Below are positions 17,249-64,000 of a DNA stretch of 64,000 nucleotides, in pieces (positions within the stretch are counted from its first letter, which is position 1; each line of letters starts with the position of its first letter). Both the position numbers and the translations under genes were made by a program. The notes beneath the pieces are model-generated. The model had not been told where the DNA came from. It did no database searches and worked only from the letters and a program-made list of their open reading frames with translations. Source of the DNA: Siphonodentalium dalli (lineage: Eukaryota; Mollusca; Scaphopoda; Gadilida; Siphonodentaliidae); assembly GCA_032622095.1 (NCBI GenBank), contig CP136069.1:153253043-153317042 (forward strand), read 5' to 3'.

Positions 17249-17263
17249 GTTACAACCTCGGCT

Positions 17264-17281
17264 TCTGAAAAGAAACAGATT
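17264..17281 (-). promoter_or_regulatory. 3' splice site in the Toll-like receptor 5' UTR
   Basis: Read on the minus strand, a pyrimidine tract and AG (ctgtttcttttcag) precede AAGCCGAGG, and the ATG at 17248 follows 15 bases later. This implies an untranslated first exon at higher coordinates and decides the start codon. The upstream exon was not found. Confidence 0.7.
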
Positions 17282-17649: not shown

Positions 17650-18340
17650 ATGCGAAAACGGAAATGGCCGAGCAGGTGAGATTCGTGCTTCAATATGACA
17701 TATATATATATATAATGTTATAATTCTGTCGCAAGGATTGAATACACTATGTGTGTCGTAAAGAAGAATAGTACCACTAATTACCGTCTAGCATGGGTGG
17801 TTGTTATATGCGGTTATGGAATAATTGTGGAGTTATCATATAAAATCGTGTGAATAACATTAAAGCGACTTACAACCACCAAGCTTGATTTTAAACCTAG
17901 CCTAATAATTTATTCCTTTAGTTTTAATATATGTCTCGTTGCGGGTGTTAAGATATATCGACACATAAATTTACATAGACTACTCATATACATACTAATA
18001 TTCGCCCCAAAAAAGTAGTTGCTCCTTTCATATATATTATGGAACAATAAAGAGCATGTTTTTTTTAAATATAATTTTCCTATTTAGTTTGTGCTTGTTA
18101 GCAGTCGGGCATAGTATCTCTTGATTTCATTTACTAACAAAGAAATATTCCCAACAACTTTATTTTTGAGAAATATTGCGGTAAACTTGTTGGTTAATGA
18201 TACGTGTTATACATCATAGATCGTCTTTATATATATACTCAGTCGTTAGCCACCACTTCGCGATATATATGTTCTTTGACCAGTTGATCGTTTTTAACTT
18301 TGCGGGTAACATTTTAATTCGATTAGGATTTCTAACTACG
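17650..18340. other. No supported gene
   Basis: Contains an isolated ATGGCCGAGCAG|gtgaga at 17664-17681 that resembles a tiny first coding exon, but no continuing exon was found. The rest is AT-rich with a TA run near 17700. Confidence 0.3.
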
Positions 18341-18347
18341 TTGGTAC

Positions 18348-18860
18348 TAGATCATTGCATGAATCTCTACTCTGACAAACGCCCGTAGAGATCAAGAATA
18401 TATTAGTGAAAAACGTCATATTTTCATATTCCGGCGGCCATCTTAGGTGGGGATTTTCAAATTTGCCCTATAAAAGTGGCGGTATGTCTTAGCTTCACGA
18501 AAATATATACATTTGTCTAAATTTTACCAGACTTTCCTGCTATAATTTGCATCAGACTGACTTTGGGCCTAGTCTGAAAAACGGCGGCCATTATGGACAA
18601 CATCTTGTCTGGAGTCTACACGGCCTCTTTTTTTTTAAATTGCTTAAAAGTTGAAGGACATAATAAGGAACAAAATGAGTATGGTAAAGTAAAGTCCCAG
18701 TGGGGTGTGCAAGGGTACCCCTATTAGCTACCGGACTAAAGATTCCCTGACAAAACTTCAAACAGTTCCAAGGTTTTGTACTAGTGTAATATGATCTATA
18801 CGGGCGTTAGGCACGGTCAAGATTCAAGGCATGATCTACGTTGGTACGTGTATATCATAT
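18348..18860. repeat. Broken palindromic repeat enclosing a G-tract-family fragment
   Basis: 18348-18400 (AATCTCTACTCTGAC, AACGCCCGTAGAGATC) and 18735-18850 (TTCCAAGGTTTTGTACTAG, GGGCGTTAG) are the two inverted halves of the repeat seen intact at 19690-19925. Between them 18592-18735 matches the window-start repeat. Confidence 0.65.
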
Positions 18861-18979
18861 CACAAGGCAGGAATTAATTTTCACACAGGGTGCTTTGCAA
18901 ATGAATTACGAAAAATTAGAATTGACCAATAAAAATAATACTGCAAGAATTTGAAAAAGGAAAGCAATACCTCGAGGTC

Positions 18980-19100
18980 CAGAAATGAACATCCAAACAA
19001 AACAAGATATTTGTATATGTATACTGTGGAACTTATCACAGAAATAAACATCCAAACAAAACAAGATATTTGTATATGTATACTGTGGAACTTATCACAT
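18980..19100 (+). repeat. 59-bp direct tandem duplication
   Basis: The unit containing ACATCCAAACAAAACAAG and ATACTGTGGAACTTATCACA occurs at about 18989 and 19048, with only one or two differences. Confidence 0.9.
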
Positions 19101-19679: not shown

Positions 19680-19925
19680 ACTTTATAAGGTCAAAACTTC
19701 AAAAAGTTCCAAGGTTTTGTACTGGTGGAATATGATATCTACGGGCCTTAGCCTGGATAGAGTTTCATGGCATGATCTAGTAGACTGGATGAAATGAAAT
19801 TTCGAATTCAGATCGCCTTTACGAAGACGTATAATGGACGTTAGATCATGCCACGAATCTCTACTCTGGCTAACGCCCGCAGAGATTATATTCCACCAGT
19901 ACAAAACCTGGAAACTTTTTGATAT
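19680..19925. mobile_element. Palindromic MITE forming the outer tip of palindrome A
   Basis: AGTTCCAAGGTTTTGTACTG pairs with the inverted CAGTACAAAACCTGGAAACT. Inner blocks ATGATATCTACGGGC and CATGGCATGATCTA also pair. A similar right half is found at 26130-26151 plus 31611-31669, split by element E. Confidence 0.75.
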
Positions 19926-21817
19926 TCTGACCCCTTCTGACAGGGAACTTTATAACATTGAACAAACAATTAAGGCAGGGAATATTTCTTTGTTTATATT
20001 TGTTAATCGATAATCTACTTCAAAGTATGGGGTGGTTCCAGCTCGAAATTGCATGCATTTTTGCGACATTAATATGAACCGATATCGCAAAACTGCTGCT
20101 GAACCCCAAAAAGTGACAAAAATCACTTCTATTTACACTTCCGCGTACATCGATGAATTTTGGTTTGATGATACTTCTAAGTGTACTCATTAAGAAAACA
20201 CAACTTAAGAAAGGGATTTTCCTGGGGTTTTCAGATAAGAAAGGGGGTCCCATGCTGAACCCCAAAACGTGATTTTTCACTTTTTTTTTACACTTTCGCG
20301 TACATCCATAATATTTGGTCTCAAAGTACTTTGATATATACTAATTATAAAAACACAAATTAAGAAGCAACTTTTCCTGGGGTTTTAAGATAAGAAGGGC
20401 GTCATCGGGTCACCCCTCAAAACGTAAAAAATTACTTTTATTTACATGATTGCAATCGTCCAACGTGTGTATATGTGCGTACACCCCTGGAACGTTGCAC
20501 TATTACAACCAATACATCCCTAAATCGATACGATCAACTTAAGAAATATATATTCATGTCGTTTTCTGATAAGAACGAGACTTGTTACCCCCCCCCCCCC
20601 CCCCCCCCCACAACCCGATCCATTTTCTAGAACTATAAGAGAGCCAGTTTTATGAAAATTATAGCGGGAAAATCTAGTAAAATGTATACAAATGTATATA
20701 TTTGCGTGAAGCTAAGACATAATGACACTTTTTTGGGCCAAAATTGAAACTCACCATCCAAGATGGCCGCCAAAATGGCTGCCGGAAGTTGAAAATATGA
20801 CATTTTTTCACAAATATCTTCTAGATCCATTCATGCTGTTTGGAACTGATTGAGTAATGCAACTTTATTTTGTGTTTTTTATATTAACTGATCATTGGAG
20901 CAATTAAATATGCAATTATTGGGGTCCTAACCCCTTCCGATCCCTCAAAAATTCGATTTTACAGAACGCAGTACAAAATTTTACAAAAAAATCACAATTG
21001 GGATTCTAGTCACATTTCAACAAGAAATGAAAAGAACATTGTAATGTAAGTGAGGCATATCATTACCTATGAATATTCCAAATCTGTGGAACCATAAATC
21101 TTACGTTGGCTCAAAATGGCTGCGAAAATGGCCGCTAAAATATGGAAAATGGTAAATATTGCCCCAGGGTGTCCTGCAGTCGCTTACAAGTTGTGGTTGA
21201 TGTACACAATTGGCTAATCTGTTTTCTATACATTGCATACTAACATGTCTGATGCACCATGGATCATTTTTACTATTGTCACCACTGACATTTACCAGAA
21301 ATATTGGACATAAATATCGGCAAGAATTCACTTTTCGGGGTTCGACCATTTGTTCAAGTAAAATGTAACTATCTTTGGATTGAAAGGTGTTTATTGTTTT
21401 GGTCTATCTTAAATGTGTCACACTACGGTGTTTATAGACTAAATTGCTCAAGATGGCTTCCAAAATGGCAACCAAATTTGTAAAAAGTTAAAAGTCAACA
21501 TATCCCGAACATTATTCTCTGCGTTATCCGAAAAAAGTGGCAAATTGTGACTCACTTGGTTATTGTACGTGTTAGTTACAATGTAATTAACTGACAACTA
21601 TGTTCTATTATGTTTGTCCCAGTTCCGTATGGGGCATGACAAATTCATTTTAAAGTTGCAGTATGGAATTTTGCGGAGAACCATATTATTGAAAGGAAAT
21701 GGGCAGAACTTTGAGACTGAACTGAGATGAACCATTATATGTGGGTATTCTGGCCCATTATGATAAAAAGTTATCAACTGGATACAGGGTGGAAGCCAAT
21801 ATGGTAGCCAGGGAGTT

Positions 21818-22429
21818 ATGACCATAGATGAGGATAATAGGTATACAGGGAGTTATTGTATGGTCATGAATGGTGTGTGGGTATATAGGGAGTGCCCTGT
21901 TGGTAACGGTGGGGCGTATATTTATATATGTTGTGGATGTGTTATCATTGGTGGTGTGTGGGGAGTAGATTTATTATCATGGATGGCGTGTATGAGTATG
22001 GCAAGTATGGAACTTATGAGTGGTCGTATGTGCGGATATTGGTTTATCTGGAAGGGCTCATCATTGGTGATGTGCATATGTAAACCTGAATTTACTCCAT
22101 GGTCATGGTTATGGCGAATAGGTATACATGTAGTGGCTGTATGGTACATGTGAGGTGAATATGTATACATTGAGTGACTGTATGATCGTGAATGTAGTGA
22201 ATATGTATACATAGAGTGACTATATGGTCGGGTGTAGGTGTTCATGCATGGTGACTCGTGGCTGTATCGTCATTTGTGGTATGTACGGGTATAACCAAGT
22301 ATGGCTGTATGATCAGGTGTACTAGTACATGTACGTGTATAAAGTGGGTGACTATGTTGTCATTTGTGTGGTGTTTATGTACATGTGGAGTGACTGGGGT
22401 AATGGGTGGGTTGTACATGTGTACTTTGA
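21818..22429 (-). repeat. 42-bp satellite array, left half of A
   Basis: About 15 diverged units in the GT-rich orientation. The unit carries GTATAC and, inverted, TAGTCACTCCATGTATAC. Reading frames stay open because 42 is divisible by three. Confidence 0.85.
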
Positions 22430-22510
22430 GTGGCTATCGCTTTCCACAATAACTCAAGGATATGTTAATCAATAGACAGGTCATGTCATATCGTGGAAAG
22501 CGATAGCCAC
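22430..22510. repeat. Boundary inverted repeat at the centre of A
   Basis: An 18-base sequence (GTGGCTATCGCTTTCCAC, 22430-22447) is repeated inverted at 22493-22510 across a 45-base spacer. The spacer contains AACTCAAGGATATGTTAA, which also occurs next to single copies of the boundary at 51895-51930 and 63150-63200. Confidence 0.9.
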
Positions 22511-24184
22511 ACATTAACACACAGCCATTACATATATACATAAACACCACAGACATAACAATATAGTTACCCACTGTCTACATGTACACCTGACCCATGA
22601 CCACGGATGACCATACAGCCTCGCGTCACAATGCAGGCACACCGGGTATACTCCTAAACATGACCCATAACCATATAGTCACTCCATGTATACCCATTCA
22701 TCTCACCATTTGCCATAAGGTCATCCCCTGTATACATATTCTCCAAACGCATGGTCAAATGGACAATCAATATATACATCAACACCACAACAATGACCAT
22801 AAAGTCATTCCGGTATACATATGCACATCACCAATGGCCATATAGCCACTCGCTTCATAAACATACCCTCACCCATGTTACCTGGTATACTCATTCACCT
22901 GACCTATGGCCATATAGTCACCCCGTGTGTACCTAATCAAAACATTCATACACGATCATGGTCAATCTTTGTATTCATATTCACCCCAACAGTGGCCATG
23001 TCAATCAATCCCTGTATTCCTATTTGTCACACCATAGCCGAATAGCCACTCACGATATACTAATACACCCAGCCATGTCAGTATAGTCACTCCATGTATG
23101 CATATGCACCTCATCCATGGCTATATAGCCACTCGCTATATACACATATCCCTCGCCCATGACAATAAAGCAACACGTATGTGTACTGGTTATAACCTAC
23201 ACATGACGATACCGACACGAGTCACCAAACAGGAACACCAGGTACATGTATACTAATACGCCTGTCACCCATGTATATATGTTCATTACATTTATGATCA
23301 TACAGTCACTACTTGTATACCTACATGTACTCATCTCACCATTAACCATACAGTCACTACATGTATACCTATTCGACACACATAGTCATATAACCACTTG
23401 ATATACGTAGGCAGCCCATCATAGACCATAGATTCACTCCAGGTATACATGTAACGCTCACTAATGGCCATTCAGCCCTTCCAGATATACAAAAAACCCG
23501 CACATACGACCACTCAAACAATCCATACTTGCATATACACCTCACACATGACAATTCAGCAATTCACTGTATAATCATACACGCCATCCATGATAATACA
23601 GCTAAGACCTATACACCCACCAATGATAATACACCCACGATATATATAAATATACATCCCACCCGTTACCACAAGGACACTCACTATGTACCCACACGCT
23701 CGATAATGTCCACCAGCTTACTCCAGGTATTCATATTCAATCATGACCGTACAGTCATTCCATGTATACCTTACCCATTACACATTACCCGTAACCATAA
23801 AATCACTACCTATTTATCCACACACCCCATCCATGATCATACAGACAACACATGTACATCCCACACACGACCTTACAGTCACTCCATATATACATAATCA
23901 ACACATAGATGACCATGTATATATATCCATACACCACACCAATGACCACACAGGCACACCGGATGCACCCGTACTGGATATACACCATACAGTCACTCCA
24001 TGCATACCGATTCACCTCACACCTGACCATGACCTCTCCCTGTATACCTAGATGCATCTTACCATGGACAACCCACTTATAACCATATAGTCACTCATTG
24101 TATACCTACTCACATCAGTCATGACATACAATAACTCCATGTATACCTATTCACCTCACATATGATCACAGAGTAACTCCCTGG
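22511..24184 (+). repeat. 42-bp satellite array, right half of A
   Basis: About 40 diverged units in the CA-rich orientation, for example two successive TGTATAC landmarks 42 bases apart. Open frames of up to 122 residues here are repeats of a 14-residue pattern like HPTHDHTVTPCIPI, and the opposite strand is equally open. Confidence 0.88.
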
Positions 24185-26689
24185 CTACGATCTTGGCATC
24201 CACACTGTATCCTGTAGACATTTTTTTATCATAATGGACCAGAATAGCCAAAGATTATGGTCCATCTCAGTTCTGTCTCAAAGTTCTGCCCATTTCCTTT
24301 CAATAAATATGGCCAAAATAACAAAAAGAGGTTCTCGGCAAATTACATACTTTAAAATGAATTTGTCATGCCCCATACGGAACTGGGACAACTGGGAATA
24401 GAACATGTAGTTGTCAGTTAATTAACTAACACGTATAATAACCAAGTGAGTCACAATTTGCTATCTTTTCGGATAATGCAGAGAATGTTCGGGATATATG
24501 TAAAAAATTAGCATTTTACAAATTTGGTTGCCATTTTGGAAGCCATCTTGAGCTTTGAGAAATTTGGTCTATAAACACCGTAGTGTGACACATTTAAGAT
24601 AGACCAAAACAATAAACACCTTTCAATCCAAAGATAGTTATATTTTACCTGAAAAAATGGTTCAAACCTGAAAACTGAATTTTTGCCAATATTTATGTCA
24701 AGTTTTTTAGAGAAAAGTCCAATATTTTTGACCATGTCAGTGGTGAAAATAGAACAATTAACCATGGTGCATCAGACATGTTAGCATTCAATGTATAGAA
24801 TGCAGAATGGCCAATTTTATACATCAACACAACTTGTAAGCGATTGCAGGACACGCTGGTGTAATATTTACCATTTTCCATATTTTGGCGGCCATATTGG
24901 CAGCCATTTTGAGCCAAAGTAAGAATTTTGGTTCCAGTGATTTGAATATGCATAGGTAATGATATGCCTCACTCACATTACAAAGTTCTGTTCATATCTT
25001 GTTGAAATATGACTAGAATCCCAATTGTGATTTTTTTTGGTGAAATTTTATACGGCATTCTGTACAATCAATTATTTGAGGGATTGGATGGGGTTAGGAC
25101 CCCAATAATTGTATATTTAATTGCTCCAATGATCAGTTAATATAAAAAACACAAAATAAAGTTGCATTACTCAACCAGTTCCAAACAGCATGAATTGATC
25201 TAGAAGATATTTGTGAAAAAATGTAGCCATTTTGGTGGCCATCTTGGATGGTGAGTTTCAATTTTGGCCCAAAAAGGTGTCATTATGTCTTAGCTTCACG
25301 AAGATATATACATTTGTGTACATTTTATTAGATTTTCCCGCTATAATATTTTCATAAAACTGGCTCACTTATAGTTCTAGAAAATGGATCGGGTTGTGGG
25401 GGGGGGGGGGGGGGGGGGGGTAACAAGTCTCGTTCTTATCAGAAACGACATGAATATATATTTCTTAAGTTGATCGTATCGATTTAGGGATGTATTGGTT
25501 GTAATAGTGCAACGTACAAGGGATGTACGCACATACACACACGTTGGACAAATGCAATCATGTAAATAAAGTGATTTTTTACGTTTTGAGGGGTGACCGA
25601 TGACCCCCTTCTTATCTTAAAACCCCAGGAAAAGTTGCTTCTTAAGTTGTGTTTTTATAATTAGTATATATCAAAGTACTTTGAGACAAAAAATTATGGA
25701 TGTACGCGAAAGTGTAAAAAAAAGGGAAAAATCACGTTTTGGGGTTCAGCATGGGACCCCCTTTCTTATCTGAAAACCCCAGGAAAATCCCTTTCTTAAG
25801 TTGTGTTTTCTTAATGAGTACACTTAGGAGTATCATCAAACCAAAATTCATCGATGTACGCGGAAGTGTAAATAGAAGTGATTTTTGGCACTTTTTGGGG
25901 TTCAGCAGCCCCTAAACCCCAGGAATGCGCAACTTAAGAAATCGGTTTTTCAGAATGTTCCATTATTGGTACCAACTTTAGGGGTCAAACCTTTTGTACG
26001 CAAAAGTGTAAATGGAACATATGCGGGCTCCCTAACTAATACTGATGAATAAACCACAAAGCAACATGTATTAACAAATAATTATGTTCCCCGCATTATT
26101 TTTCGACTTTATAAGGTTCCCTGTCAAAACTTCGAGTTGAACTGGTGGAATTTATGGGAGGCCAAATTCACATTTATTAATAATTGCGCTTCAGTACAAT
26201 TCAATTGCGCTTCAGCGCAATTAATTATATATATAACCAGGTGTCCTCAAAATCTTAGTCAAACCCACTAGATTGATTGATACGTCTCTTTATTACATGC
26301 TCCTACCCTTATTCCATTCAATAAACCCATTCTATAAATTCTGATATTAAACGTTCGTTTTGATAACAAGAAATAGTGCCAGGTAACCTTTGACACCCGG
26401 TTTGTCGTCTGTTTAATTTACATAAGCTATGTCTCAAAATACTATGGCTTCCAATATTTTTCCAACAACCAATAATGAATGAAGAGTTGGAAAAGTTCTG
26501 TCATTAAATATACGCCTTAAAATACGCCAAAGAGTCTTTATTTATCTGGGACTATTTCTTTACGTGGACAAACAACGCATACTTACGTGAAACGTCATCG
26601 CATGCCTTATAGAAGCAGATGTTAGTTTATCGTCCCATTTGTTGATTTATTACGCCACCTAGTGTGGTGTTACTAGCATTTGTTTTTTT

Positions 26690-27185
26690 TATATCGCATG
26701 GAGTACAGGGCGAATGTATTCTTGGAGATTGTTTGTACCTTACTCAATCGTACCGATATAATCACGTAGATGCCGAAATTGTAAAGTTAACGCCAGCGGT
26801 GTATAATACGTTTATGAAAATATGATAAATCCTATCGATAGAGTCAGGACAGGCTCAAATTGTAAACTTAAAGTCACCGGTGTAATAATATGTTGTTGAA
26901 AATATAAATAATCTGATAGCCTGAAAATATTGTATAACCTATTGGGAGCCCATAATAAATGGGAATAACCTATTGGGAGCCCCTGCTGTATTTTATGGAG
27001 ATTGTTTGTACCTTACTGAATCGTACCGATATAATCACGTAGATGCCGAAGTTGTAAAGTTAACGCCACTGGTGTATAATATGTTTATGATAAATCGTAT
27101 CGATAGAGTGAGGACAGGCTCAAATTGTAAACTTAAAGTCGAAAATATAAATAATCTGATAGCCTGAAAACATTGTATAACCTGT
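26690..27185 (+). repeat. Direct duplication inside element E
   Basis: The block with GAGATTGTTTGTACCTTACT, CGTACCGATATAATCACGTA and GACAGGCTCAAATTGTAAAC occurs at about 26725-26930 and 26995-27175, with some substitutions and a 20-40-base deletion in the second copy. Confidence 0.85.
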
Positions 27186-27599
27186 TGGAGCCCCTGGTGT
27201 AGTGAACTGAATTATGGGTAATTTTAATTGGAGTGCGCATGTCTGTTTTTTTTGTAGTAACGGCCATCTTTTATTTTCTGCATGCGCAGTCTATATGCGT
27301 TCTTTTGGGGAAATTCGCTATTTTGGTTAAGTGAAAACAATGGTATGAGTTCAATGTTTGTTTGTATATAAGAAAGTATATTGAATTTTGGAGGCCGACA
27401 ATTGTATCTATTTGAAGATTAAAAGTTGCTTGTGTGTATTTAGCTGTGCATGGTTCGTTAATTAGGCCAGCCTATTGTCATATTAGAACGTCTCCAATAA
27501 CATACAACCTCTCTGCAGTTAACATTGTGAATTTGGCAACAGTCCAAGCAGGCCCTCTAATGGAGCACTGTGAATTTGGCAACAGTCCAAGACACGTGG

Positions 27600-27763
27600 G
27601 GTATATATAAAATACACACGTAGTGTTTCTGAATACCAAATTTACACCACGAGTGGGATTGATGGTTTACCACACGAGCTTTAGCGAGTGTGGTAAATCA
27701 TCAATCCCACGAGTGGTGTAAATTTGGTATTCAGAAACACTACGTGTGTATTTTGTTTATACC
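27600..27763. mobile_element. Near-perfect palindromic MITE
   Basis: Arms of about 70 bases: AAAATACACACGTAGTGTTT pairs with AAACACTACGTGTGTATTTT, and CCACGAGTGGGATTGATGG pairs with the opposite arm. The short central loop is near CGAGCTTTAGCGAG. Confidence 0.9.
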
Positions 27764-29283
27764 ATGACCGGTACAGGAGCAACAACTGCTATGAAATCGA
27801 AATAAACCCACTTAAATTAAGATGATTCTGTCGCACCATTCACAATCATCCCCGTTGTGTTCCCCACACTTGGCCGTACATCGACGTACACTATCACAGC
27901 TGATCAGGCGTATTGATACATTGAATTAGGTCAACATTCAATTGTACGAATATGGTATCATTGTAGCCAATTCACAATAAACTGTAATCATGATGAAACC
28001 GCCATAAATAAACAACATGAATATATATATGGGAATACGAATTTAATGAATATAAATATAACACATTGCGGGAACTTTTTTTTCTCCGCCGTACAGTGAA
28101 CAGGAAACCACGAAAGTCATTTTGAAATCCACCGTTTGTTGTTCGAGTTTTTTACGTCTATTTCTTGAAATATATGTTCAATTTGTTGATCTGGATGTGA
28201 TTTCCACGGAATAACTGTTCGTTTTTATCGCATTAGTGAGTATAATATTCAATTGAATCGAAAGTATCAAATTGTTTTCATCGCGAGGCGCTACATTTTA
28301 AAAATAGAGTGATTTTGATCGAGGTCATGGAAGGTTAATGAAAGGTCAACTCGGATGTAGTTCTACTATGGGTATAAACTTTAACCATTGAAATGCCATT
28401 AAAACGTGTTACCCACAGTAGAAACGTGTTACCCGCGGTCGGACTCCTGTTCACACACAGTAGGGTGTACAGCACAAATATATTATATAGCATGTTTGTA
28501 CACAGTACAATAGGGAGTCATGGTATAAAATAACTGAACACCTGTGGCCAACTTGATCTCCAGAATGTTTTTAAGTGGAAGGGACAGTGTAGTGGGGTGG
28601 GGGTGGAAGTTAGATTTTGAGTGTGTATGATTCACAACTTTTGTAAAAAAAAGTTAATGCACATGTAGTTGGAAATTTCATACATTATTACACTACAACA
28701 TAAAGGTTAAAATACATGGTTACCATTGCCTGGTATCCCAACTAGTAATTATTGTCCCCATTATGATGGGGACGGGGATCGAATGATGGAGGTATTTTGA
28801 GGGGGTGGGAGTCACAACTGTTATAAAGAATTTTAACAGTTGGAAATTTCATACATGATTACACTAACTTTTTGTCCCCATTTATTTTACTGCTGTCTTG
28901 TTTGTTACTGTATTCCTGATATGGAAATAATAAAGAGCATTTATTACGCCACCTGTGGTGTATCTAGCTGCTGAGATTTTGATATTGCGTGGTGGACAGG
29001 GCGAATGCATTGTGGGGCTTTTATTTATAGAGTTGGAAATTCCGTTTATTTAAAAGTCGGAACTACGCGACCAGTAGGCCAAGTCCAGTAAAACGGTTCG
29101 TTATAGGTGCTGGTTGTTATTGTTATTTTAACGGAATTCTGAGTTGGTCATTCGCGAAACCAATATATTTTATATTCTATAATTAAAACCGTGGGTATAT
29201 AATATATGATCCTCTTTATGGATATTGTAGGAAGGTAAATTTAGCTAAAGCGGTGGGATATCTTGCAAGACAACACATTTCGG

Positions 29284-29998
29284 TTTGCGCTATAACTGCT
29301 CAATGTTTTAAGGTGTTACACAACGTCTGTTAAAAAGAGTTCTATCGGGAATATTCACACTATTTTTTTCAGAGAACATGCATAGAGTAAACATAGTCCT
29401 ATCGGACTATCGTAAAGTAGTTCCGTTTAATTCGGGATTAATTAACCCTCAGACTGCCGAAACTGCCGACAATAAATTCGCTTGTTCGTGTCCGCCGAAA
29501 ATCAAACTTGCCTGTTTAGAGGTCCCATTTTCGTGGCTAATGGTGATAGAATCACAATTTTTCAGTCAAATTCATGGATAAATTACATTACACTTAATCG
29601 GCTTATGTCCGCGGCCATAAACCTGCGTTTTGATAACAATTTATTTGAGACAAACTGTTGCGCGGGTATCAGTCGGCGCTTATCGGTTGAAGTTATTATG
29701 ATCGTGCAGCCTGCGCGTGCAACAAGTGTTCAAATACAACAGAAGAAAAAAAATACTATGTCAAATAAATAACGTCATCAATGGACAGACAAGTTTCATT
29801 TCCGCGGGACACGAAAAAGCGAATTTAATGTCGTCAGTTTCGGCAGTCTGAGGGGTTTAATTAATCTCCTTTACGATATCCCGATAGGACTATATTTACA
29901 CTATGTTCTCTGAAAAAAAATGGTGTGAATATTCCCGATAGAACTATTTTTATCAGACGTTTTTTAACACATTAAAACATTGAGCAGTTAGCGCAATT
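29284..29998. mobile_element. TIR element with about 200-base arms
   Basis: Arms 29284-29495 and 29803-29998 pair through GCTATAACTGCTCAATGTTT, GAGTTCTATCGGGAATATTC and CAGACTGCCGAAACTG. The 300-base centre has short frames without family resemblance. Confidence 0.85.
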
Positions 29999-30564
29999 TT
30001 CTGGAATTTCGGACTATTTCGTCTATAAAAATACGATGAGCAACTGAAAATGTTTTTCAACATTCTGGAAGGGGTAGATGTCCAGGTATATATGTTTAAA
30101 ATTTCACGCATAAACTATGACAGATAACAAAGTTATAATTAGTTTTATAGGCCCACCATAAATCCCCTATAATAAACGCATGCCCCCGTAAGCACATGGC
30201 TTTGCTGTGGATGCTTTCGTTCCCAGCATGCATCATTCTCGCTATCTGTAAAATGTCTATGAACAATGGCTGTGCCACGCACTCTTAGCTTTGATCCGCA
30301 TTTAGAAGCATTCTGGTGTGGCGAATGAGAAACCTGCAGTAATTTATAAGCCGTAGTTCATTGTAATAATTTGAAGAATTACTTTTATCACATAATTTGC
30401 CCATAAAAGCAGTTTCATAATTATCGATAAGAGACACGTTTAATATCAGCGCGTGCGATGACGTCACATCGTTCTTCAAATGACTTGCGATCGCTGCAAT
30501 TTATTATCGTTGTTTTCGATGGATATTTCGCATTGCTTCGCGTTTATTTGATCATGTGATAAAA

Positions 30565-30711
30565 AGTATCTCACACTCGTCCTATTTTATACGTAATTTA
30601 TCAACCTCGTCCACTAACTTCTATTTGAGCCTCGGTAAACCTCGGCTCAAATCGAATTTAGTGAACTCGGTTGATAAATTCCGTATAAAATAGAAACTCA
30701 TGTGAGATCCT
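30565..30711. mobile_element. Palindromic MITE, CTCTATAT-end family, copy 1
   Basis: AGTATCTCACACTCGTCC pairs with the inverted arm ending GTGAGATCCTCTATATC. Arms of about 65 bases surround a TTTGAGCCTCGGT core. Related to 30875-31027 and 38614-38774. Confidence 0.85.
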
Positions 30712-30874
30712 CTATATCTTAACGGAATTCTGAGGCGGTCCATTCATGTAACCAATATATTTTATATTATGATTTATATTTATGGCTAATAATACGATCT
30801 TGGTGGCGTTACCATTTCTGACTATGGTTTTCTTGTTATGTATGTTTTGTAGAGTTTTTGGATCATGTAATAAA

Positions 30875-31027
30875 TAGAATCTACAACTCGTCCCCAGTTT
30901 ATAGCGGAATTTACAAAACTCGTCCGGTAAATTAGGTCTTGACCTCGCCAAAGGCTCGGTCCAAACCTAATTTACTGGACTCGTTTTGTAAATTTCGCTA
31001 TAAACTGGGGACTCGCTGTTGATCCTA
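30875..31027. mobile_element. Palindromic MITE, CTCTATAT-end family, copy 2
   Basis: CAACTCGTCCCCAGTTTATA pairs with TATAAACTGGGGACTCG, with arms of about 70 bases. It shares with copy 1 the upstream context GATCATGTRATAAA and the downstream GATCCT.TATAT. Confidence 0.85.
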
Positions 31028-31339
31028 TATATGTAAAACTCAATTGTCATCTTTTATTTTTGCGAACTAATGTGCTCATGTTCACGTTATAACGTATGAA
31101 GTTTACGCAGTTGTAAATAAATAAATAGTTCTTTATTGGTGGGACGGATTAAACGCGATAAACAAAATGACAATCGCTCCGATCCGACAAGGTGAGCTAC
31201 TACTTATATTCCGTGTGTAAGAATCATGTTTTGTGATGCTATTTGGGTATATAATTTATGAGAATATGTGTAACGCTTTGCACAAGAGTATCCTCTATTC
31301 CCATCATATATCTATAATATGCAGAGGGTTTCACATTAC

Positions 31340-31372
31340 TTTAACCTGGGCAACGCCGGGTAACCCTACTAG
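31340..31372 (+). mobile_element. Helitron-like 3' end
   Basis: A GC hairpin (CCTGGG caacg CCGGGT) is followed about nine bases later by CTAG and T, the layout of a Helitron 3' terminus. The 5' end was not delimited. Confidence 0.45.
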
Positions 31373-32149
31373 TTAATGAATAAATCCAATAGAAAATAAT
31401 TGCGCTTCAGCGCAATTGATGGCGCAATTATTTTCCCATATATGGGAACCCCCAGTTAATTAATGGAATAACCTATCTATTCAGGGGTGTAAGCTTGTAA
31501 CAATAATTGCGCTTCAGCGCAATTGATATGAATCAAGCTGGATTGCGCTTCAGCGCAATTGAATTGCGCTTCAGCGCAATTATTAATAAATGTGAATTTG
31601 GCCTCCCATAGGAATATGATCTCTACGGGCGTTAGCCAGAGTAGAGATTCATGCCATGATCTAACTGGATATTTTTCTATCGAAAAGTCAAGTTTATTCA
31701 GTTCCCGGCTTTTACACGCATGACTATATAATAGACATTTCAGTCAATTTAATTTCATTCATTTAATTATATATACCACATGTTTTTATATTTACATTTT
31801 TGCCATACAAATTGAAACTTTCTAAATATAGTAAACATGTTTCGAGTGTTATCGAAATTTCTCCCCCTCCAGAAATTTGAGGTACGAGAGCTGTTAGAAC
31901 ATCTATATAGTTACATTCATCAATTGAAAACGACCATGACTTGAACAAGTGGATTGCCTTCGCAATCTATATTGCTGTTAAAATATTCACATACGATAAA
32001 ACCGCCATAAACAGAAAAGAATATTAAAATATCGACATATTTTGTTCTTAAACGAATCATATACATCGCGTAAATATAATATTATTGTCAAGATCGTACG
32101 CCGTGTTAGTAAACAAAAGCTAAATTATGTTACATTACAGTACACAAAG

Positions 32150-50060: not shown

Positions 50061-51894
50061 ATATCCGGTGTATAGACCTTGAGCTACCATATGGTCACCC
50101 CCCCCCCCCCTGTGCGGATTTTAGCCGACTATGTTTTTCCGATAGAGGGATGTATTTTACACATTTGTTTGCTTGTCTGCCACTCGGGCGTGGGGGCTTT
50201 TTCATTTTATAGCGATTTTTATAAAACTACTGTGATTTTTTGCGATAAAATCCTTATTGGGGGTAGGGGAAACATTTCTCTCAAAATTAATACTAAAACT
50301 GTATGTATCTTCTCAAACTCAGTTTCATTCGAACTGAATATAACAAGTGTCTGCGTAGATAGCGCCACATGGGCACCTGACTCGATATTGTTCTTAAAGT
50401 GACACCGATGATATGATTTTTCGTTTATTTTGAAGATATATCTGAAAAAGTACAGTGTGTGAACTTACGCATGCATAACGTGATTAAACTATGAACAATA
50501 CCGATGTTTTCATTATTTTCCACGAGAACATAGACCAGGGCAGTTTTCTATAACATTCCACGAGCACATGGATGCATATAGGTAGTCAATGTTCACATGT
50601 ATCGAGGCCATTGAATCCAAGATGGCCGCCAAAATTGAATATCTGACTTGATAAATTTGAATTCGCAATCACTCCGGCAGTTTATGAGATATTAAGTCGT
50701 GCGATATGTTATTCTATTGATAGTTGAGTAGTCCTTATTGAGAGGTATAAATAAATTTCATATATTAAAAATGGCCGCCAAAATGGCCACCGGAAGTAGA
50801 AAATATGACTATTTTTCACTCATATCTTCTTGATCAGTTTCTGCTGTTTGGAACTGGTTGAGGATTGTGACCTTATTTTTTATAGTTTTATATTAACTAA
50901 TCACTGGGGTAATGAAAAAAGCAATTATTGGGGTCCTAGCCCCCTCCATTCCCTCAAAAGTTTGATTTTACAGAATGCGGTATAAAATTTCACCAAAAGA
51001 TCACTATTGGGTTTCTGTTCAAATTTCAACAAAGAATGAGCACAACTCTGGAATGTAAGTGGGGAATACCATTATACATGGATACTCCAATTCATAGGAA
51101 CAAAAGTTGTTACTTTGGATCAAAATGGCCACCAAAATGGCCGCCAAAATATGGAAAATGGTAGATATTGCCCCAGTGTGTCCTGGAATCGCTTACAATT
51201 TGTGGTTGATGAATGAAATTGGCTATTCTGCCTTCTATACATTGAATACTAACATTGTTACTAACTATTGTAACAAAGACATTACCAGAAATATTTCACT
51301 CTCACAAACGTGACATAAATATCGGCAAAAAATCTCTTCTCATGTTTGAACTATTTGTTTGCAAGTAAACTGTAACTATATTTGGCATGAGAGGTGTTTA
51401 TTGTTTTTATCTATCTTAAATGTGACACAATAAGCTGTTTAATGACCAAATTACTCAAGGTGGCTTCCAAAATGGCAACTAAATTGGGTAAAAAGTTGAT
51501 TTTCACATATATCCGGAACATAATTATCTGCTGTTCCGAAAAGGTAGCAAAGTGTGACTAACTTTGTTATTATACACGTTAGTTAATCGACTGACAACTA
51601 CATTTTATATTCTGGTTGGCACTGTACATTATGAGGCACGATCATTTAATTTTAAAATGTGCAGTGTACAATTGTGCCGAAAACGTCTTTTGGGATTCTG
51701 GCCAAGTTTTTGAAAATAAATGGGCAGAACTTTGAAACGGAACTGAGAGGGACCATCCGACCATAATATGTGTCTACTCTTGCCCATTAGCATATACATT
51801 TATCAACCATTGTCAGGAACATCGTTTAACATTTCCTCCATCGTGCATACACGCCACCAAGGAGGACTCTCTGGTGTGATCTCTATATCAAGTA

Positions 51895-51930
51895 ACATAT
51901 CATTGAGTTATTGTGGAAAGCGATAGCCAC
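51895..51930 (-). repeat. Satellite boundary motif in B
   Basis: AACATATCATTGAGTTATTG followed by GTGGAAAGCGATAGCCAC, the same boundary found doubled at 22430-22510 and singly at 63150-63200. It separates the left arm from the array. Confidence 0.85.
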
Positions 51931-53795
51931 CCAAGGTACACATGTACAACCCACCAGGGCCATACAGTCACTCCAAATACAAATAAACAACACACATATT
52001 ACAATATAGTCGCTCGCTTTATAAACATACACCTCACCCATGCATAACCACACAGCCATACTTGTGTATATCCCTGCACACCACACATGACCATACATCT
52101 GTCAATAACAATATTTGTTAATGCATGCACACCAGGTATACCTCCTACAACTGACCAATGACCGTATCGTCACTATATGTATACATATTCACCACATTCA
52201 TGATCACACAGTCAATCATTGTATACATATTGACCTCACCATTGGCCATAAAGTCAATCCATGTGTACCTATGTTCCACACTCATGGGCGAATAGCCACT
52301 CAAGGTATACATATACACCCCACCCATGGCCATTGCATCGCTCCATGTATACATATGCAGCTCACCAATGGTCATATAACCCCACTTGCGTATACCCATA
52401 CACCCCACACAGTCATAGGTCAACATACATGCATACATGTACACCATGTAAACTGTTACACCTGACCCATGACCATATAGCCACTCACTGTATTCACCAC
52501 ATTCATACAGTCACTACAGGTACACATATTCACATCACCATTGGTCATACGGTCAATCCCTGCATATCTACTCGCCACGCCAATTGCGAAATAGCCACTC
52601 AAGATAAGCATATACACCCCACGCATAACCATAGAGTGACTCCAGGTATACATATGCACCTCAGCAATGGTCATATAGTCACACGTGCTATACATATATA
52701 CCCCTCGTCCAATGACCATACAACCACTTGGCGTATACCCGTACACATAACATATGACAATGAGTCACCATACATGCACACCAGGTTTTCTCCTACACCT
52801 GACCCATTTCACTCCATGTATACATATTCACCACACTGGTGATCACACGGTCACTCCTTGTACACCTATTCATTTCATTAATTGCCACACAGTCACTCCC
52901 TGTATACCTATTCACCATACCCATGGTCATATAGCCACTCGATATATACATATGCAACACAAACATGCACATATAGTCACTCCATGTGTACATATACACA
53001 TCACCAATGACAATAAAGTCCTTCCAGGTGTACCAATACTTCTCACACATGATCAATTATACATTCCAGACTTTTATATACACCCCACACATGACAATTC
53101 AGTCACTCGCTGTGTACTCATACACGCCATCCATGATCATACAGTTACTCCCTGTATACCTATACATCCACCGATGACAATATACATCCACGACATATAT
53201 AAATATACATCCCACCCATTACCACCACGGCACTCCCTATATACCTACACGCTCGCCAAAGACCACCCATATACACAGGCATGTATATTCATGACCGTGC
53301 TGTCAGTCCATGTACACCTATACACATTACACATATTCTTCCAACCACTCCCTATTTATCCATATACCCCACCCATGATCACTTAGACACCAGATGTATA
53401 CATGGTCACCCACATGTGGCAATACAGCCACCAAATATACACCTATACATCCCACCATGACCATAGTCACTCCATATATACATAAACAACACATATATGA
53501 CATTGTAGCTACTCCCGTTATATCCGCACCCAATATCATTGTCCGTACAGCCACATCGTGTTACCCGTACATCCACACATAAACATACAACCATACAGTC
53601 ACTCCATGTAAACATATTCAGCTCATACATTACCATACGGCCACTACTTGTATACATATACATCTCACAATGGACATCCCACTCACGATCATATAGACAT
53701 TCCATGTATATCTGTTCACATCATTCATGATCATAAAATAACTCCATGTATACCTATTCACCTCACCTATGACCATCCAGTAACTCACGGGCTAC
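51931..53795 (+). repeat. 42-bp satellite array in B
   Basis: About 44 diverged units, CA-rich orientation. Frames of 193 and 210 residues on this strand and about 100 residues on the other are translations of the unit (CIHIHPTHDHTVTP-like, 14 residues). Confidence 0.9.
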
Positions 53796-55746
53796 CATAT
53801 TGACCTCCCTCTTGTATCGAGGTGATCAATTTTATCCTAATGAGTCAAAATAGCCAGAATAGTCACCACAGATTATGGTTCATCTTATTTCCGTTTCAAA
53901 GATTCAAAGTGGCCAGAATCCCAAACGAGGTTTTCGGCAAAGTTCCATAAGCAACTTTAAAATGAATTTGTCATGCCCCATAAGGAACCGGGACAGCCAA
54001 TAATATTTAGTTGTCAGTTGATTACCTAACATGCATAATAACCAAGAAAGTTACAATTTGCTAACTTTTCGGAACAGCAGACAATAATGTTCCGGATATA
54101 TGTGAACAATGAACTTTTTACCCAAGTTGGTTGCCATTTTGGAAGTAATCTTGAGTAATTTGCTCTATAATGACCTTAGTGTGAAACATTTACATTAGAC
54201 CAAAACGATAAACACCGTTCATATCAAAGTTAGTTACAGTTTACTTTTAATAAAAATGATCAAAACATGAAAAGTTAATTTTTGCCGATATTTATGTCAA
54301 GTGTGTGAGAGTAAAATCCAATATTTCTGGTAATGTCAGTGGTTACAATACTAAAACTTAACCAAGGTGAATCAGACATGTTAGTTTTCAATGGATATAA
54401 GGCAGAATAGTCAATTTACTTCATCAACCACAGATTGTAAGCGATTGCAGTGAACGCTGGGGCAATATATATATACAATATTTACAATTTTCCATATTTT
54501 GGCGGCCATATTGATCCAAAGTAATAATTTTGGTTCCAATGACTTGGAATATTCACGGGTAATGGTAAGTCTCACTTACATAACACAGTTCTGTTCATTA
54601 CTTGTTGAAATGTGACGAGAATCCCAATTGTGATTTTTTTGTGAAAATTTTATACCGCTTCCTGTAAAGTCAAATTTTGAGGGATCGGAAGGGCCTAGGA
54701 CCCAAAGAATTTCTTATTTCATTGCCCCAATGATCAGTTAATATAAACAATGCAAAATAAAGTCACAATTCTCAATCAGTTCTAAACAGCAGAAACTGAT
54801 ATAGAAGATATTAGTGAAAAAGTGTCACATTTTCCACTTCCGGTGGCCATTTTGGCGACCATTTTAAATATATGAAATTTATTCCTACAAATAAATATGG
54901 AGTACTCAATTATCAATAGAATGGCATATCGCACGACGTAATACCTCATAAACTTCCTGATTAATTGCGAATTGAAATTTACCTGGTTATATATTCAACG
55001 TTGGCGGCCATCTTGGATTCAAAGACCGATAACTCTATAAAGCCCCCATCGCCAGATGGCAAACAACGGAAAATTGAAGGACTGATATAGTTCTACAAAG
55101 ATATCATAACCACCAAAAATCCGCATAGGGGGGGGGGGAGGGGGGTCTACATGCAGCTCAAGCTCTAGTAAGGCTACGTTTATATACTGGCAAGATTGCA
55201 CGTCATTTTTTGCAGGCATTTTCTCATAGAAACATGTATATAAAATGCATCTTTACCAAAGCTAACGACGTGAGAAGTAAACTTTCGATAGTTCCACATG
55301 TAACGGTGCTGCTAACACATTGCCTGAAAATACTTGTATGATTGATTCTTGCATGCTATTTACAGGCAAATTTCCATAGCGTCGCTACTAGATGAACTAC
55401 GTTGTTTTTACTTCTCATGTAGTTACATGTACATTTAATGAGCATTTTTGCATTCGGTTCATGACACATTGACGCTTTCTATACCGAAATGCCTGTAAGA
55501 GAATGCCTGGCAAATTGGCGACTGTATGAAAGTACCCTAAATGTGCGGTGTAAAAGTATTTCGTGTATTTATATCGACCAATTTCGATTCCAGGGCGGAA
55601 TGTAGCAACACCGAGTTAATATAGGTTTAATTTGAGATTCATGAATATGAGACACTTTTATTTTAAAGATACGGATGGCCTTCGCTGTGTGTATTTCTGT
55701 TAGAGAAGTCACATCCGTTAAAACCGCCAAAAACAGAAAGAATATG

Positions 55747-58689: not shown

Positions 58690-59540
58690 ATCTATATCTA
58701 TATTTGCGAATGTCTGTCTGTCTGTCTGTCTGTCTGTGTTCTATAGAAATTCACAGGGGACAATCTAGATGGCACCAAATGGGTCTACTAGGGGTAACTT
58801 TTTACGAGAAAGATAATGATGAGGGTTAGGATTTTCTAAAGTGGCGCCGTTGTTGTCAGGGGCAGAAAAGGGGTAGGGGCAGAATTATTTTGTCGCCGAT
58901 TGCCACGAAACTTATATATAATCATCCCCATGATATAAGGAATCTGATGGTGTGGTTTAAATATGTCAAGAGTGGCGCCGTTCGAGTCAGGGATGCACGG
59001 AAGGGAGAGGGGCACCAAAATTGATAAACTAAGTTTAGCGCCGAGGGACGATCTAGATGGCACCAAACTGTCTACTATGGGTAACTCTTTACGAGAAAGA
59101 TAATGGTGTGGGTTATAATTTTCTAAAGTGACGCCGTTGTCAGGGGCAGAAAAGGGGGAGGGGTAGAAAAAATGTTTGCCGCCGATTGACATTCCCATGA
59201 TATGAGGAATTCTAATGGTATTGTTTAAATATGTCAAACGTGGCGCCGTTCGTGTCAGGGGTGCACGGAAGGGGAGAGGGGCTCCAACATTGAAAAAACT
59301 AATTTTAGCGCCGATTTCCACCATATTGATATATATTCTTCTCCATGATACAAGGAATCTAATTGTTCGATTTAAAGACTCCAAATTGCTGTCGTTGGAT
59401 GAAAGATTGTGGGAGGGGCACTCAATTTGATAAGAATGGGTTTAGTCGCCGATTGCCACCACACTTATACAATGTCATCCCCATGGTATGAGGTGTCTAA
59501 TGGTGTGGCTTAAATCTGTCAAAAGTGGCGTTATAGTTTG
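58690..59540 (+). repeat. Tandem repeat with TCTG microsatellite head
   Basis: A (TCTG)n run at 58714-58736 is followed by several diverged units of about 150 bases carrying GGCGCCGTT, CCGATTGCCAC, ATCCCCATGATA and GGAATCTGATGGTGTG-like blocks. The 182-residue minus frame across it is a repeat artefact. Confidence 0.75.
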
Positions 59541-60885
59541 GTCGAATAAAGGTTTGTCCTAGAATAAATTTGAACTAAATTGGTTTGTATACCATTTTGA
59601 AGAGAAATATATCCTCTATAACATATCCAAAATCCGCTAAAATCCGCTTTGAGCAATTTTTTGTAATTCAAGATGGCGTCCAAGATGGCTGCCATTTCCG
59701 TTAAATCAGTTCTACGCAATTATAGTGAGAAAATCTTGTCATATGTATAGTCTGGTATACATTTCTGTGAAGCTAAGACATACCCCCACCGTTGTATTCC
59801 AAAATTGGATCGCCCCGTCATAAATGGCCGCCAAAATGGCGGCCGGAAGTGGAATTTTTTACGCTTTTTACTAATATCTTTAAGATAAGTTTCTACTGCT
59901 TGGAACTGGTTGAGAATTTTGACTTTATTTTGTATTTAACATCTTAACTGACCATTGGAGCAAAGAAATATGCTATTCATGGGCTCCCAACCCCTTCCGA
60001 TCGCTAATCAATTCGATTTTACAGAACGCGGTATAACATAGCACAAAATATCACCATTGGGATTCTAGTCATATTTCATCAAGAAATTGGAAGAGCTGTG
60101 CAATGTAAGTTATGCTTTCAACTTTTTATGGATATTCCAACTCAATGTTACAAAAATCGTCACTTTGGATCAAAATGGCTTCCAAAATGGCGGCCAAAAT
60201 ATGGAAAATTCTCAATATTGTCCCAGTGTGCCATGCAACTGCTTATAAGTTGTTGTTGATGCACACAGTTGACTATTCTGTCTTATATACATTGAACACC
60301 AACATTTATGATGCACCTTCGTTAATTGTTTCCATTGAAACCACTAAAATCACCAGAATTATTCATTTTTTTCTGTCACAAACTTTTCATCAAAATCGGC
60401 GAAAAATCACTGTTCAGGTTTGAAACATTTTTTAAAGTAAAATGGAAATTTCTTTGGTATCAGCGATGTTTATTATTTTGATATGTTCTAACTGTGTCAC
60501 ATTGATGTGTTTTAGACAATATTGCTCACGATGGCTTGCAAAATGCATGGCAACCAAATTTGGTAAAATGTTGATTTGTCACATATATTCCGAACATTAT
60601 TCACTGCTGTTCCGAAAAGGTAGCAGATTGTGACTCACTTGGTTATCAAAAATGCTACTTAGTCAACTAAATGTGATATTCTGGTTGTCCCAGAACCTTA
60701 ATAGGCATGGAAGTTCATTTAAGGGGTGCAGTATGGATTTTGCCGAAAATTTCTTTTGGAATTCTGTCCATGTTTTTTTTAACTGGAATGGGCAGAAAGT
60801 TGAAACGGAACTGAGACGGATCATAGTACTCTGGCCCATTGTAATCAACATTGATCAACTTAATAGATTGTGTATGTCTGTTGAA

Positions 60886-63149
60886 TGTATGGCTATAGGT
60901 GAGGTGAGTATGTATACGGGGAGTTATTGTATTCATGAATGATATGAATAGTTGTACAATGTATGACTATATGGTCATGTATGGGGTGCCACGTTGAGTT
61001 GTATATGTATATAAGGAGTAGATTATGGTCACGACCGTCATGTGTGAGGTGAACATGTATGCAGGGAGTTGTTGTCTGGCCATTGGAGTGGTGTATGTGT
61101 ATAGCGAGATTAGCTACATTGTCTATCTTTCTGTTGTGTATGTATATATGGAGTGACTGTGGTCGTGGGTGGGATGTACAGGTGTACATTGGGTGGCTGT
61201 ATTGTCATGGGTGGGTGTATATGTATACACGCGTTTTCTGTATGATAATGGATGGGGTGTACGGATAAATATGGAGTGGTTGTATGGTTATGGGCAATGT
61301 GTATATGTGTACATGGAATGACTGCAGGGTCAATGTTGTTGAAGTGTATATGCATACCTGGAGTACAGTTCGGTGGTCACTGGCGGGCTTGTGTATATAG
61401 ATAGTGACATCATGGTCATGGGTGGGATGTTTATCTGTTGTGACTGTATTGTCACTGCTGTGTAGCGGTATACAGTGAATAGCTGAATGCTCATGGATGT
61501 GGTGTGTAAGAATACAGCGAGTGGCTGAATTATCATGGTTGAGCTATAGTTTTGCAAGTCTGAAGTGTACGAATGGCCGTGTGTGGGGTATAGGCATATA
61601 TAGAAGGACTGTATGGTAATTGATAAGGTATACATACACCTGGAGTGACTATGGTCATAGGTTAACCAATACAGACAACCAACCAATACAGGTAAATATA
61701 GGCTAACAAATATATGTAAGTGGGTATCTGCCAAGGTGTCACATTTGTCCGCGTCAACGAAAATCACACCTAGCCCTCCAAAAGGACAATAACAAGTCAG
61801 AATGGAGCACTGGCTGACGGACCATAATGCCTTTCCGTTTGTCAGTATAAGCATAGTGAAATAAATAATGGCTTATATCCTATCCTATTCCCCACACAAT
61901 GATAGTGGTACATAAATGTATGGATGTCAAAAGAAAGGGGATGATGTCTGTTAGGCATACTACAGAATATTCTAGGCTACATATATCATTACCAAGGTCC
62001 CTTATTTCTCGCAGACAAATTGATCCCGGTTCTAATGACATGAATGTTGATTTGGAAGCTGGGTCCTGGAGCAGTTTAATGGAATTTTGAAAATAGTTTT
62101 GGAACGTACCCCACAAAAACAAGATTTTATTTTATGCCAAACGTAGAGTTTAGACATTTTTGGAAATTACTCCCAATGAGTTTAAAAGATGCCAAAATGT
62201 TTGGATAAGATCAACACCAGTTGCAGATCGCTGACTATGTCCCATACTAAGCAAATGTCACTTTACGTTTCGACTCATTACATGAAAGACGCGAGCCCTT
62301 GTATATCTTGCATGGCTATATTGCCATGATGTGGCCAATATGTATATATGGAGTGCCAGTGTGGCAAAATTAATGGTGGGTGAATTGGTATACAGGGAGT
62401 GACTGTATGATCACGAGTGTGGTTTATGAGTATACAGCGAGAGGCTGAATTGTCATGGTGATGTCTATATGCACATTTGGAGTGTATGAATGGCCGTGTG
62501 TGCGGTGCGGGACATTGGTATATCTAGAAGGACTGTAACGCCATTGGTGAGGTTTATATGTATACTATATATACATGTAATGACTCTATAGTTTTGGATT
62601 GGGTGTATATGTATATTTTGAGTGGATATATGACAATGGGTGTCGCAAATATATATGCAGGGGGTGACTTTATGACCCCTGGTGAGGCAAATATGTATAC
62701 AAGAAGTAATGTACAAAATGAATGTTCATGAATGTGGCGATAATATATATCGAGAGAGACTATATTGTCATCGTTTGGATGTATATCTTGAGTGCCTATA
62801 TGGCCATGCATGTGGCAAATATATACATGTACACGGAGTGACTGTATTACCAATGGTGATGCGAATATGTATACAGGATGTTACTGTATGTTCATGAATG
62901 TAGTGAATAGGTATACATGTCGTGACTATGTGGTCATGGGTGAGGTGTATGAGTATACCTGGTGTGCCTGCATGTTTACTCATGGTTATATGGCCATGTG
63001 TTGGGTGTATGGGCATATCCATGTGTGGCTGTGTAGAAGTAGGTGAGGTGTATGTGTATAAAGCGAGTGACATATGTTCATTTATGTGGCGTTCGTGTAT
63101 ATATGGAGTAACTGCATGGTCATGTGTAAGTTGCACTTGTGTCCCTTTG
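60886..63149 (-). repeat. 42-bp satellite array in C, interrupted
   Basis: TG-rich orientation units at 60886-61660 and 62310-63149. Between them about 650 bases are not satellite. The boundary motif follows at 63150-63200 (AACTCAAGGATATGTTAA-type, here ACTCAAGGATATGTTAAC). Confidence 0.85.
61665..62310. other. Foreign insert within the satellite of C
   Basis: Non-repetitive sequence with balanced composition. A plus-strand frame at 61899-62090 (63 residues, containing RSLISRRQIDPGS and ending SWSSLMEF) reads unlike the satellite around it, and the minus strand is also open (61880-62122). No family recognised. It may be a decayed gene or element fragment. Confidence 0.4.
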
Positions 63150-63644
63150 TGTGACTATCGATTTCCTATCGCTATTACTCAAGGATATGTTAACCGATAA
63201 AGAGATCATATCAGAGTGTCTCTTAATGGCCTTTGGTATGCAATACGAATGAAACGGTTTTCATGAAAATAGTATATAAGTTAATAAATGTTGATACTAA
63301 TGGGCCAGAATAGCCACACAACATGATCCCTCTCAGTTCCGTTTCAACGTTCTGCCCATTTCCGTTCAAAGACAGACAGAATCCCAAAAGAAGTTTTCGG
63401 CAAACATTCATACTGCATCCCTTAAACTGATTTGTCATGCCTCATAATGTACTGGGACAACCAGAATATGACATTTAGTTATCAGTTGATTAAGTAGCAT
63501 CTTTAATAACCAAGTGAGTCACAATGTGCAACCTTTTCGGAACAGCTTGTAATAATTTTCGGAATAAATATGACAAATCAACTTTTTACCATATTTGGTT
63601 GCCATTTTGCAAGCCATCTTGAGTAATTTTGTCTAAACCACCTA

Positions 63645-64000
63645 GTCCAGGAGATATTGGTCGACCTCTGCACCCCCCAGGACTTAACTTCACCCCACTA
63701 ATTTTCTTCCTTAATGTCTCCTCTAATTTTTTTCACTTGTTAACAAGAAAAAAAAAGTGGCCGCAGAGACTACAGACAAGATGGCGTCCATCATGGCGGT
63801 CATTTTTTTTAAAATGCACCAGGTCTCTTTGATCGCCATTATAGTAAAGATAATAGCACATGCGGTCTTGTTTTCCGCTCGATAATGTGAAGATATGCTA
63901 TTTTTCTGACATGTTACCTCCTTTCGTTTGTCTCTGTGGGAAAATGTTAGATTTTTTGCGCCATGTTATACATTTATCATATTGAGGAGTCATTGGCGAA
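63645..64000 (+). repeat. Dispersed repeat of the window-start family, continues past the window
   Basis: Reverse complement of 209-649: CCAGGAGATATTGG, AGGACTTAACTTCACCCC, CAAGATGGCGTCCATCATGG. The poly(G) tract of the left copy is only C6 here. Confidence 0.8.

What the first reader, a model, noticed from the sequence alone, without database searches (positions are those of the whole stretch)
19838..31669. Giant palindrome with opposed satellite arrays at its centre
About 6.4 kb (without the 5.46-kb insertion) is arranged as arm, array, boundary, inverted boundary, inverted array, inverted arm. The arrays differ in length (about 15 and 40 units) while the arms match closely. This is not the layout of a simple MITE or of a known autonomous transposon, and no mobility gene was found.
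Basis: partly seen in the sequence, partly recalled or inferred. Interest (0 to 1): 0.75.

Follow-up and report, generated by a model that had tools for sequence, protein, structure and literature searches.

The report
Palindromic non-coding DNA transposon family
The giant palindrome is one damaged copy of a common jumping DNA element that carries no gene of its own; two sister families in the same window share its middle but carry different ends, and of the three only this one has become a full palindrome.

Summary
The palindrome is real but its limits were misdrawn. It is a copy of a dispersed non-coding DNA transposon, family A, at 20095-26038 (intact copies about 6.06 kb). Intact copies end in TAGTT[A/G]GGGAGCCC... 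and its complement, with 3-bp target duplications in 11 of 15 end pairs. The genome holds 606 plus 325 exact 24-mer termini. The window copy lacks its left 130 bp. I found no coding copy; a transposase acting in trans is inferred and was not identified.

Two sister families in the window, B (50073-55167) and C (from 59534), share the arm core and the 42-bp array but have different outer ends, also beginning TAG. Their arrays run one way; only A has opposed arrays, with two boundary motifs head to head. A therefore looks like a palindromic dimer of one half-element. Its outer kilobase is nearly identical on both sides (1-3% different), its inner arms are not (11-17%), so ends and core have separate histories. 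Class: foldback-like non-autonomous TIR transposon, superfamily unresolved.

The parts
20095..26038 (.). Family A element, window copy, left-truncated by 130 bp
   Evidence: Alignment to other copies starts at 20095 and the shared right terminus ends at 26038
20095..21819 (+). Left (short-array side) arm, terminus missing
   Evidence: Inverted match to the right arm; limits of arm and array approximate
20098..20443 (+). Subterminal tandem repeat, period about 155 bp, 2.2 copies, 73% matches
   Evidence: Tandem Repeats Finder
21820..22437 (-). Short array of 42-bp units, inverted
   Evidence: 11 minus units, 0 plus
22430..22447 (-). Boundary motif, inverted
   Evidence: GTGGCTATCGCTTTCCAC
22493..22510 (+). 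Boundary motif, forward
   Evidence: GTGGAAAGCGATAGCCAC; both motifs 63 bp apart in 17 of the 20 loci
22512..24170 (+). Long array of 42-bp units
   Evidence: 32 plus units, 0 minus
24171..26038 (-). Right (long-array side) arm, ending in the intact terminus GGGCTCCCTAACTA (26025-26038)
50073..55167 (+). Family B sister element: inverted arms, one-way array, TAGACCTTGAGC / GCTCAAGCTCTA ends, GTA on both sides
   Evidence: boundary motif at 51913
59534..63646 (-). Family C sister element, right end not reached: inverted arms, one-way array, starts TAGTTTGGTCG
   Evidence: degenerate boundary motif at 63151

Best explanation
Family A is a non-autonomous DNA transposon of foldback-like build. Its ends (TAG...CTA, inverted, followed by subterminal repeats) are recognised by a transposase made elsewhere in the genome, which inserts the whole 6.06-kb unit and leaves a 3-bp target duplication. 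Shown: discrete ends, target duplications, dispersed near-identical copies, no coding found, core-less derivatives. Inferred: the transposase, its recognition of the subterminal repeats, and excision. Origin, partly shown: the layout of families B and C is arm, boundary, one-way 42-bp array, junction, inverted arm. In A one half (boundary, array, junction, arm) stands twice, head to head at the boundary, most simply by copying that half in inverted orientation during repair. The outer kilobase of both arms became nearly identical at about the time of the last spread, by conversion or by gain of new ends.
For: Ends and 3-bp duplications: 11 of 15 end pairs (chance probability below 1e-11). Copies: 8 of 20 fetched loci align in one piece of at least 5.7 kb at 95.7-97.4%; 606 and 325 exact 24-mer termini with 0 in the reversed-pattern controls. 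No coding. Core-less derivatives: L033-L035 and a 1.17-kb pair. B and C one-way arrays, A opposed; one boundary motif in B and a degenerate one in C, two in A. The arm-array junction sequence stands at both arms in A. Step in arm divergence near column 1000 of the arm alignment: 1.0-3.2% outside, 11-17% inside, against 1.2-4.3% between copies.
Against: No transposase linked to the ends; 4 of 15 end pairs lack a 3-bp duplication (L034 and L035 match at 2 and 4 bp, L037 at none, the second C2 element at 1 bp). The copying model predicts that both A arms are nearest to the junction-side arm of B; the distances do not decide it (A short side 0.190 to junction-side and 0.207 to boundary-side arm; A long side 0.196 and 0.194). 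Family C's duplication was not tested and B's only in the window copy.
Confidence: 0.75

Rival explanations
1. Family A is an internal-deletion or replacement derivative of an autonomous element with the same ends, whose transposase gene stands or stood between the arms.
For: The usual origin of non-autonomous elements (general knowledge). The genome holds CACTA-type matches (78) and PIF/Harbinger-type matches (150 scored of 910 candidates), both families that can give 3-bp duplications (passages).
Against: No coding copy among those read; the sister families share the same non-coding middle; 0 of 26 listed CACTA- or Harbinger-type matches on contig 1 lie within 31 kb of an exact A terminus. 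Most copies were not read.
Confidence: 0.3
2. The opposed arrays arose by a plain inversion of the left end of the array inside a B-like element, without copying a half.
For: Only one strand switch is needed; the short array has the unit of the long one.
Against: In A both arm-array junctions are of the type that B has only on one side, and two boundary motifs are present instead of one; a plain inversion would not add copies.
Confidence: 0.15
3. The structure is not a transposon but a segmental palindrome or an assembly artefact.
For: Long palindromes are prone to misassembly (general knowledge).
Against: The same layout with the same unequal arrays recurs at many places with different flanks and target duplications.
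Confidence: 0.02

Closest known systems
Tetris / DAIBAM foldback elements, Drosophila virilis group (PMC4079207, passages seen)
   Same: Long inverted repeats with tandem repeats, non-coding middle, no autonomous copy found
   Different: 8-10-bp target duplications; the tandem units (about 220 bp) lie in the inverted repeats and vary in number and feed satellites; here 3 bp, 42-bp units in the middle, stable number
Galileo, P superfamily (PMC3573991, passages seen)
   Same: Long internally repetitive inverted repeats; two-TIR, extended-TIR and chimeric copies with ends and middle from different subfamilies
   Different: 7-bp target duplications; its nearly complete copies hold transposase sequence; no central opposed array in the passages seen
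Foldback-type Mutator relatives such as Tm1 (PMC3169594, search listing only)
   Same: Foldback architecture
   Different: Mutator-type target duplications of about 9 bp (recalled); 3 bp here
Helentrons carrying satellite-like arrays in oysters (PMC7492417, search listing only)
   Same: Non-autonomous elements that carry short tandem arrays around a genome
   Different: Rolling-circle elements without terminal inverted repeats and target duplications (recalled)

Membership tests
Class II TIR DNA transposon, non-autonomous | Discrete ends that are terminal inverted repeats | tested here: met
Class II TIR DNA transposon, non-autonomous | Target-site duplication of fixed length | tested here: met
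   3 bp in 11 of 15 end pairs
Class II TIR DNA transposon, non-autonomous | No transposase in the element | tested here: met
   Window frames of 90 aa or more are array or arm frames; 0 Pfam matches for 10 of 10 frames given, 6 of them from the arrays; only part of the copies read
Foldback elements (FB, Galileo, Tetris) | Long inverted repeats containing tandem repeats | tested here: met
   Arms of about 2 kb; 155-bp subterminal repeat; array at the inner end of the arms
Foldback elements (FB, Galileo, Tetris) | Target duplications of 7 (Galileo) or 8-10 bp (Tetris, Mutator type) | tested here: not met
   3 bp; comparison lengths from passages
PIF/Harbinger (PHIS) | 3-bp duplication, canonically TWA, and a DDE_Tnp_4 transposase | tested here: inconclusive
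   Length fits; sequences such as CTT, TTG, CAT, CCA do not fit TWA (TWA recalled); transposases present in the genome but none linked to the ends
CACTA/EnSpm | 5'-CAC..GTG-3' termini with 3-bp duplications | tested here: not met
   Termini are TAG...CTA; terminus rule
Zator | 3-bp duplication and a PF07592-type transposase | tested here: inconclusive
   Length fits; no PF07592 match in the genome, but none in the controls either
AcademX | 3-4-bp duplication and an XPG-type nuclease in the autonomous element | tested here: inconclusive
   Length fits. Of 7 XPG_I matches, 5 look like cellular XPG, EXO1 or GEN1-like exons by my own reading; L043 and L047 were not resolved
Helitron/Helentron | No terminal inverted repeats, no target duplication | tested here: not met
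   Both are present; the defining rule is recalled

The most novel reading that the evidence does not exclude
A conserved non-coding core (inner arms plus an ordered 42-bp array) has persisted in at least three families while the outer ends were replaced by different TAG-starting modules. This reverses the usual pattern, in which non-autonomous elements keep the ends and change the middle. The core would then itself be under selection, for example as a phased protein-binding platform (42 bp is four helical turns) or for its folding, and the full palindrome of A would be its latest form.
Probability: 0.25. Interest if true: 0.65.

Novelty: new variant of a known kind. Interest (0 to 1): 0.42.

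Why it matters
Sister families side by side in one genome let one follow how a foldback element turns into a full palindrome and how the ends and the middle of a transposon evolve apart. Each copy is also a potential hairpin and recombination substrate. If the core is really kept while ends are exchanged, the rule that only the ends of non-autonomous elements are conserved would need an exception.

Tried and rejected
Coding arrays. 42 is a multiple of three and open frames of up to 219 aa run through the array. Against the window copy, substitutions showed a three-base period in both arrays. Against a majority sequence this mostly faded in the long array (20.8, 19.7, 16.3% variable sites by phase) but stayed in the short one (14.6, 13.6, 26.2%); every frame of both arrays has stops. 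Ten frames given to Pfam, 6 of them from arrays, matched nothing. Rejected as coding; the short-array signal is unexplained.

Autonomous copy. The 12.3-kb pair on contig 2 is two neighbouring elements. The 10.9-kb pair on contig 1 has a 4.4-kb insert in one arm with no frame of 110 aa or more inside it. The extra sequence in L036 and L037 holds no frame of 120 aa or more. For the other loci only frames of 200 aa or more were listed: those inside A are array frames. Families PF07592, PF00867, PF02992 and PF13359 gave no linked transposase.

Core-less derivatives. L033 (1.95 kb), L034 and L035 (0.68 kb), and a 1.17-kb pair on contig 1 whose middle is of another kind. L034 and L035 have the same junction and the same right flank, so they may be one insertion copied with its surroundings. 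Whether the others moved after losing the core is not shown.

Arm tree to test the copying model: not decisive. Right ends of two further B copies: missed. Naming the organism: not achieved (one search returned no paper).

Full report
What is there. The window lies on contig 9 of a 2.23-Gb genome in 9 contigs; I did not identify the organism. Inverted arms at 20095-21894 and 24092-25909 match at 87.4% over 1864 columns, far above 30 shuffles. Between them lie two arrays of a 42-bp unit in opposite orientation, 11 minus and then 32 plus recognised units, meeting at two 18-bp boundary motifs head to head, 63 bp from start to start.

It is a repeated element with fixed ends. The arm search listed 40 matches out of 6569 first-look candidates; I fetched 20 stretches around listed matches. 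In 8 of 20 the element aligns in one piece of at least 5.7 kb at 95.7-97.4%; the others carry insertions or deletions, are truncated, or were cut by the stretch fetched. In the copies displayed, similarity ends at TAGTT[A/G]GGGAGCCCGCATATGTTC or its complement. Of 15 end pairs that lay whole within fetched stretches (ends with up to two mismatches), 11 have a 3-bp direct duplication; the exceptions are L034, L035, L037 and one of two neighbouring elements on contig 2. The 24-mer occurs 606 times and its G variant 325 times, with 0 for the reversed patterns. On contig 1, whose listing is complete in both calls, 111 ends make 38 pairs and leave 35 unpaired; 23 of 38 pairs measure 5.77-6.19 kb, the extremes being 1.17 and 10.9 kb.

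The window copy. Its right end is intact at 26038 and its left 130 bp are missing.

Sister families. At 50073-55167 lies family B, with ends TAGACCTTGAGC and GCTCAAGCTCTA and GTA on both sides. From 59534 lies family C, starting TAGTTTGGTCG; its right end was not reached. Two further left ends of each fit TAG starts. B and C match A in the inner arms and array at about 70-78%. The first 0.5 kb of B and the first 87 bp of C gave no match to A at E 1e-3, and the window shows no match between the rest of C's outer part and A. Against full unrelatedness, A and C share a 12-base motif near their ends (AAAGGTTTGACC, one mismatch; the only two such places in the window). In B and C the array runs one way (B 36 plus and 0 minus, C 32 minus and 0 plus). 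B has one boundary motif between its arm and the array, and C a degenerate one in the mirrored place. So the opposed arrays are peculiar to A among these three.

History read from divergence. In six oriented full copies, the two arms differ by 1.0-3.2% over the outer 1000 alignment columns, about as much as copies differ from each other (1.2-4.3%); over the next 1000 columns they differ by 11-17%. So the two ends became alike at about the time of the last spread, on an older core. The G-type terminus sits on the short-array side in 5 of 6 copies and the A type on the long-array side in 6 of 6. No G-G pair occurs among 38 (permutation P 0.004). The two halves therefore keep their identity. Array size is stable: of 10 fetched copies examined, 9 have 9-10 units one way and 25-31 the other (L036 and L037 read in reverse), and L022 has 10 and 22.

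How it works. Inverted ends, target duplications, subterminal repeats (20098-20443) and no coding found point to movement in trans by a transposase. A 3-bp duplication does not fit the Galileo (7 bp) or Tetris (8-10 bp) types. TAG termini do not fit CACTA. Harbinger, Zator and AcademX types remain open. The step from a B-like element to A is most simply an inverted copy of one half at the boundary, as by template switching in repair. Two boundary motifs and two like junctions support this; the arm distances do not decide it. Why the outer kilobase is nearly identical, by conversion or by gain of new ends, is also open.

Literature. I saw passages of PMC4079207, PMC3573991, PMC10045372 and PMC12730594, and only listings from the searches. 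In those titles and abstract starts I saw no foldback element with 3-bp duplications and a central opposed array. The library is partial and I did not read those papers, so this is weak evidence about print.

Limits. Unit counts rest on a weight matrix whose cut-off lets in a few chance matches (5 elsewhere in 1-19000 and 27000-50000). Organism, helper transposase and present activity are unknown.

Noticed in passing
window 26153-31610: A 5.46-kb insertion with inverted ends (TATGGGAGGCCAAATTCACATTTATTAATAATTGCGC..., 69-bp arms 91% complementary) and palindromic GCGCTTCAGCGC units; GGAAT stands on both sides, a possible 5-bp duplication; its longest open frame is 98 aa.
   Followed up: partly
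window 46999-47621 and 49000-49625: A 626-bp direct repeat at 99.2% identity, with a third, inverted copy at 42329-42953 (82.8%).
   Followed up: no
L034 and L035: Two 0.68-kb core-less A derivatives with the same junction, both beside the same repeat; the left flank of L034 looks to me like a 5S rRNA-derived sequence (the 5S reading is recalled, not searched).
   Followed up: no
window 21820-22437: The short array shows a three-base period in which sites vary between copies (14.6, 13.6, 26.2% by phase) although no frame is open.
   Followed up: partly
G000 contig 7, about 18.86-23.97 Mb: Twelve CACTA-type transposase matches clustered within about 5 Mb, each with one in-frame TAG, unlike the dispersed open copies elsewhere.
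   Followed up: no
window 61609-62315: Gap in the 42-bp units of family C, probably another insertion.
   Followed up: no
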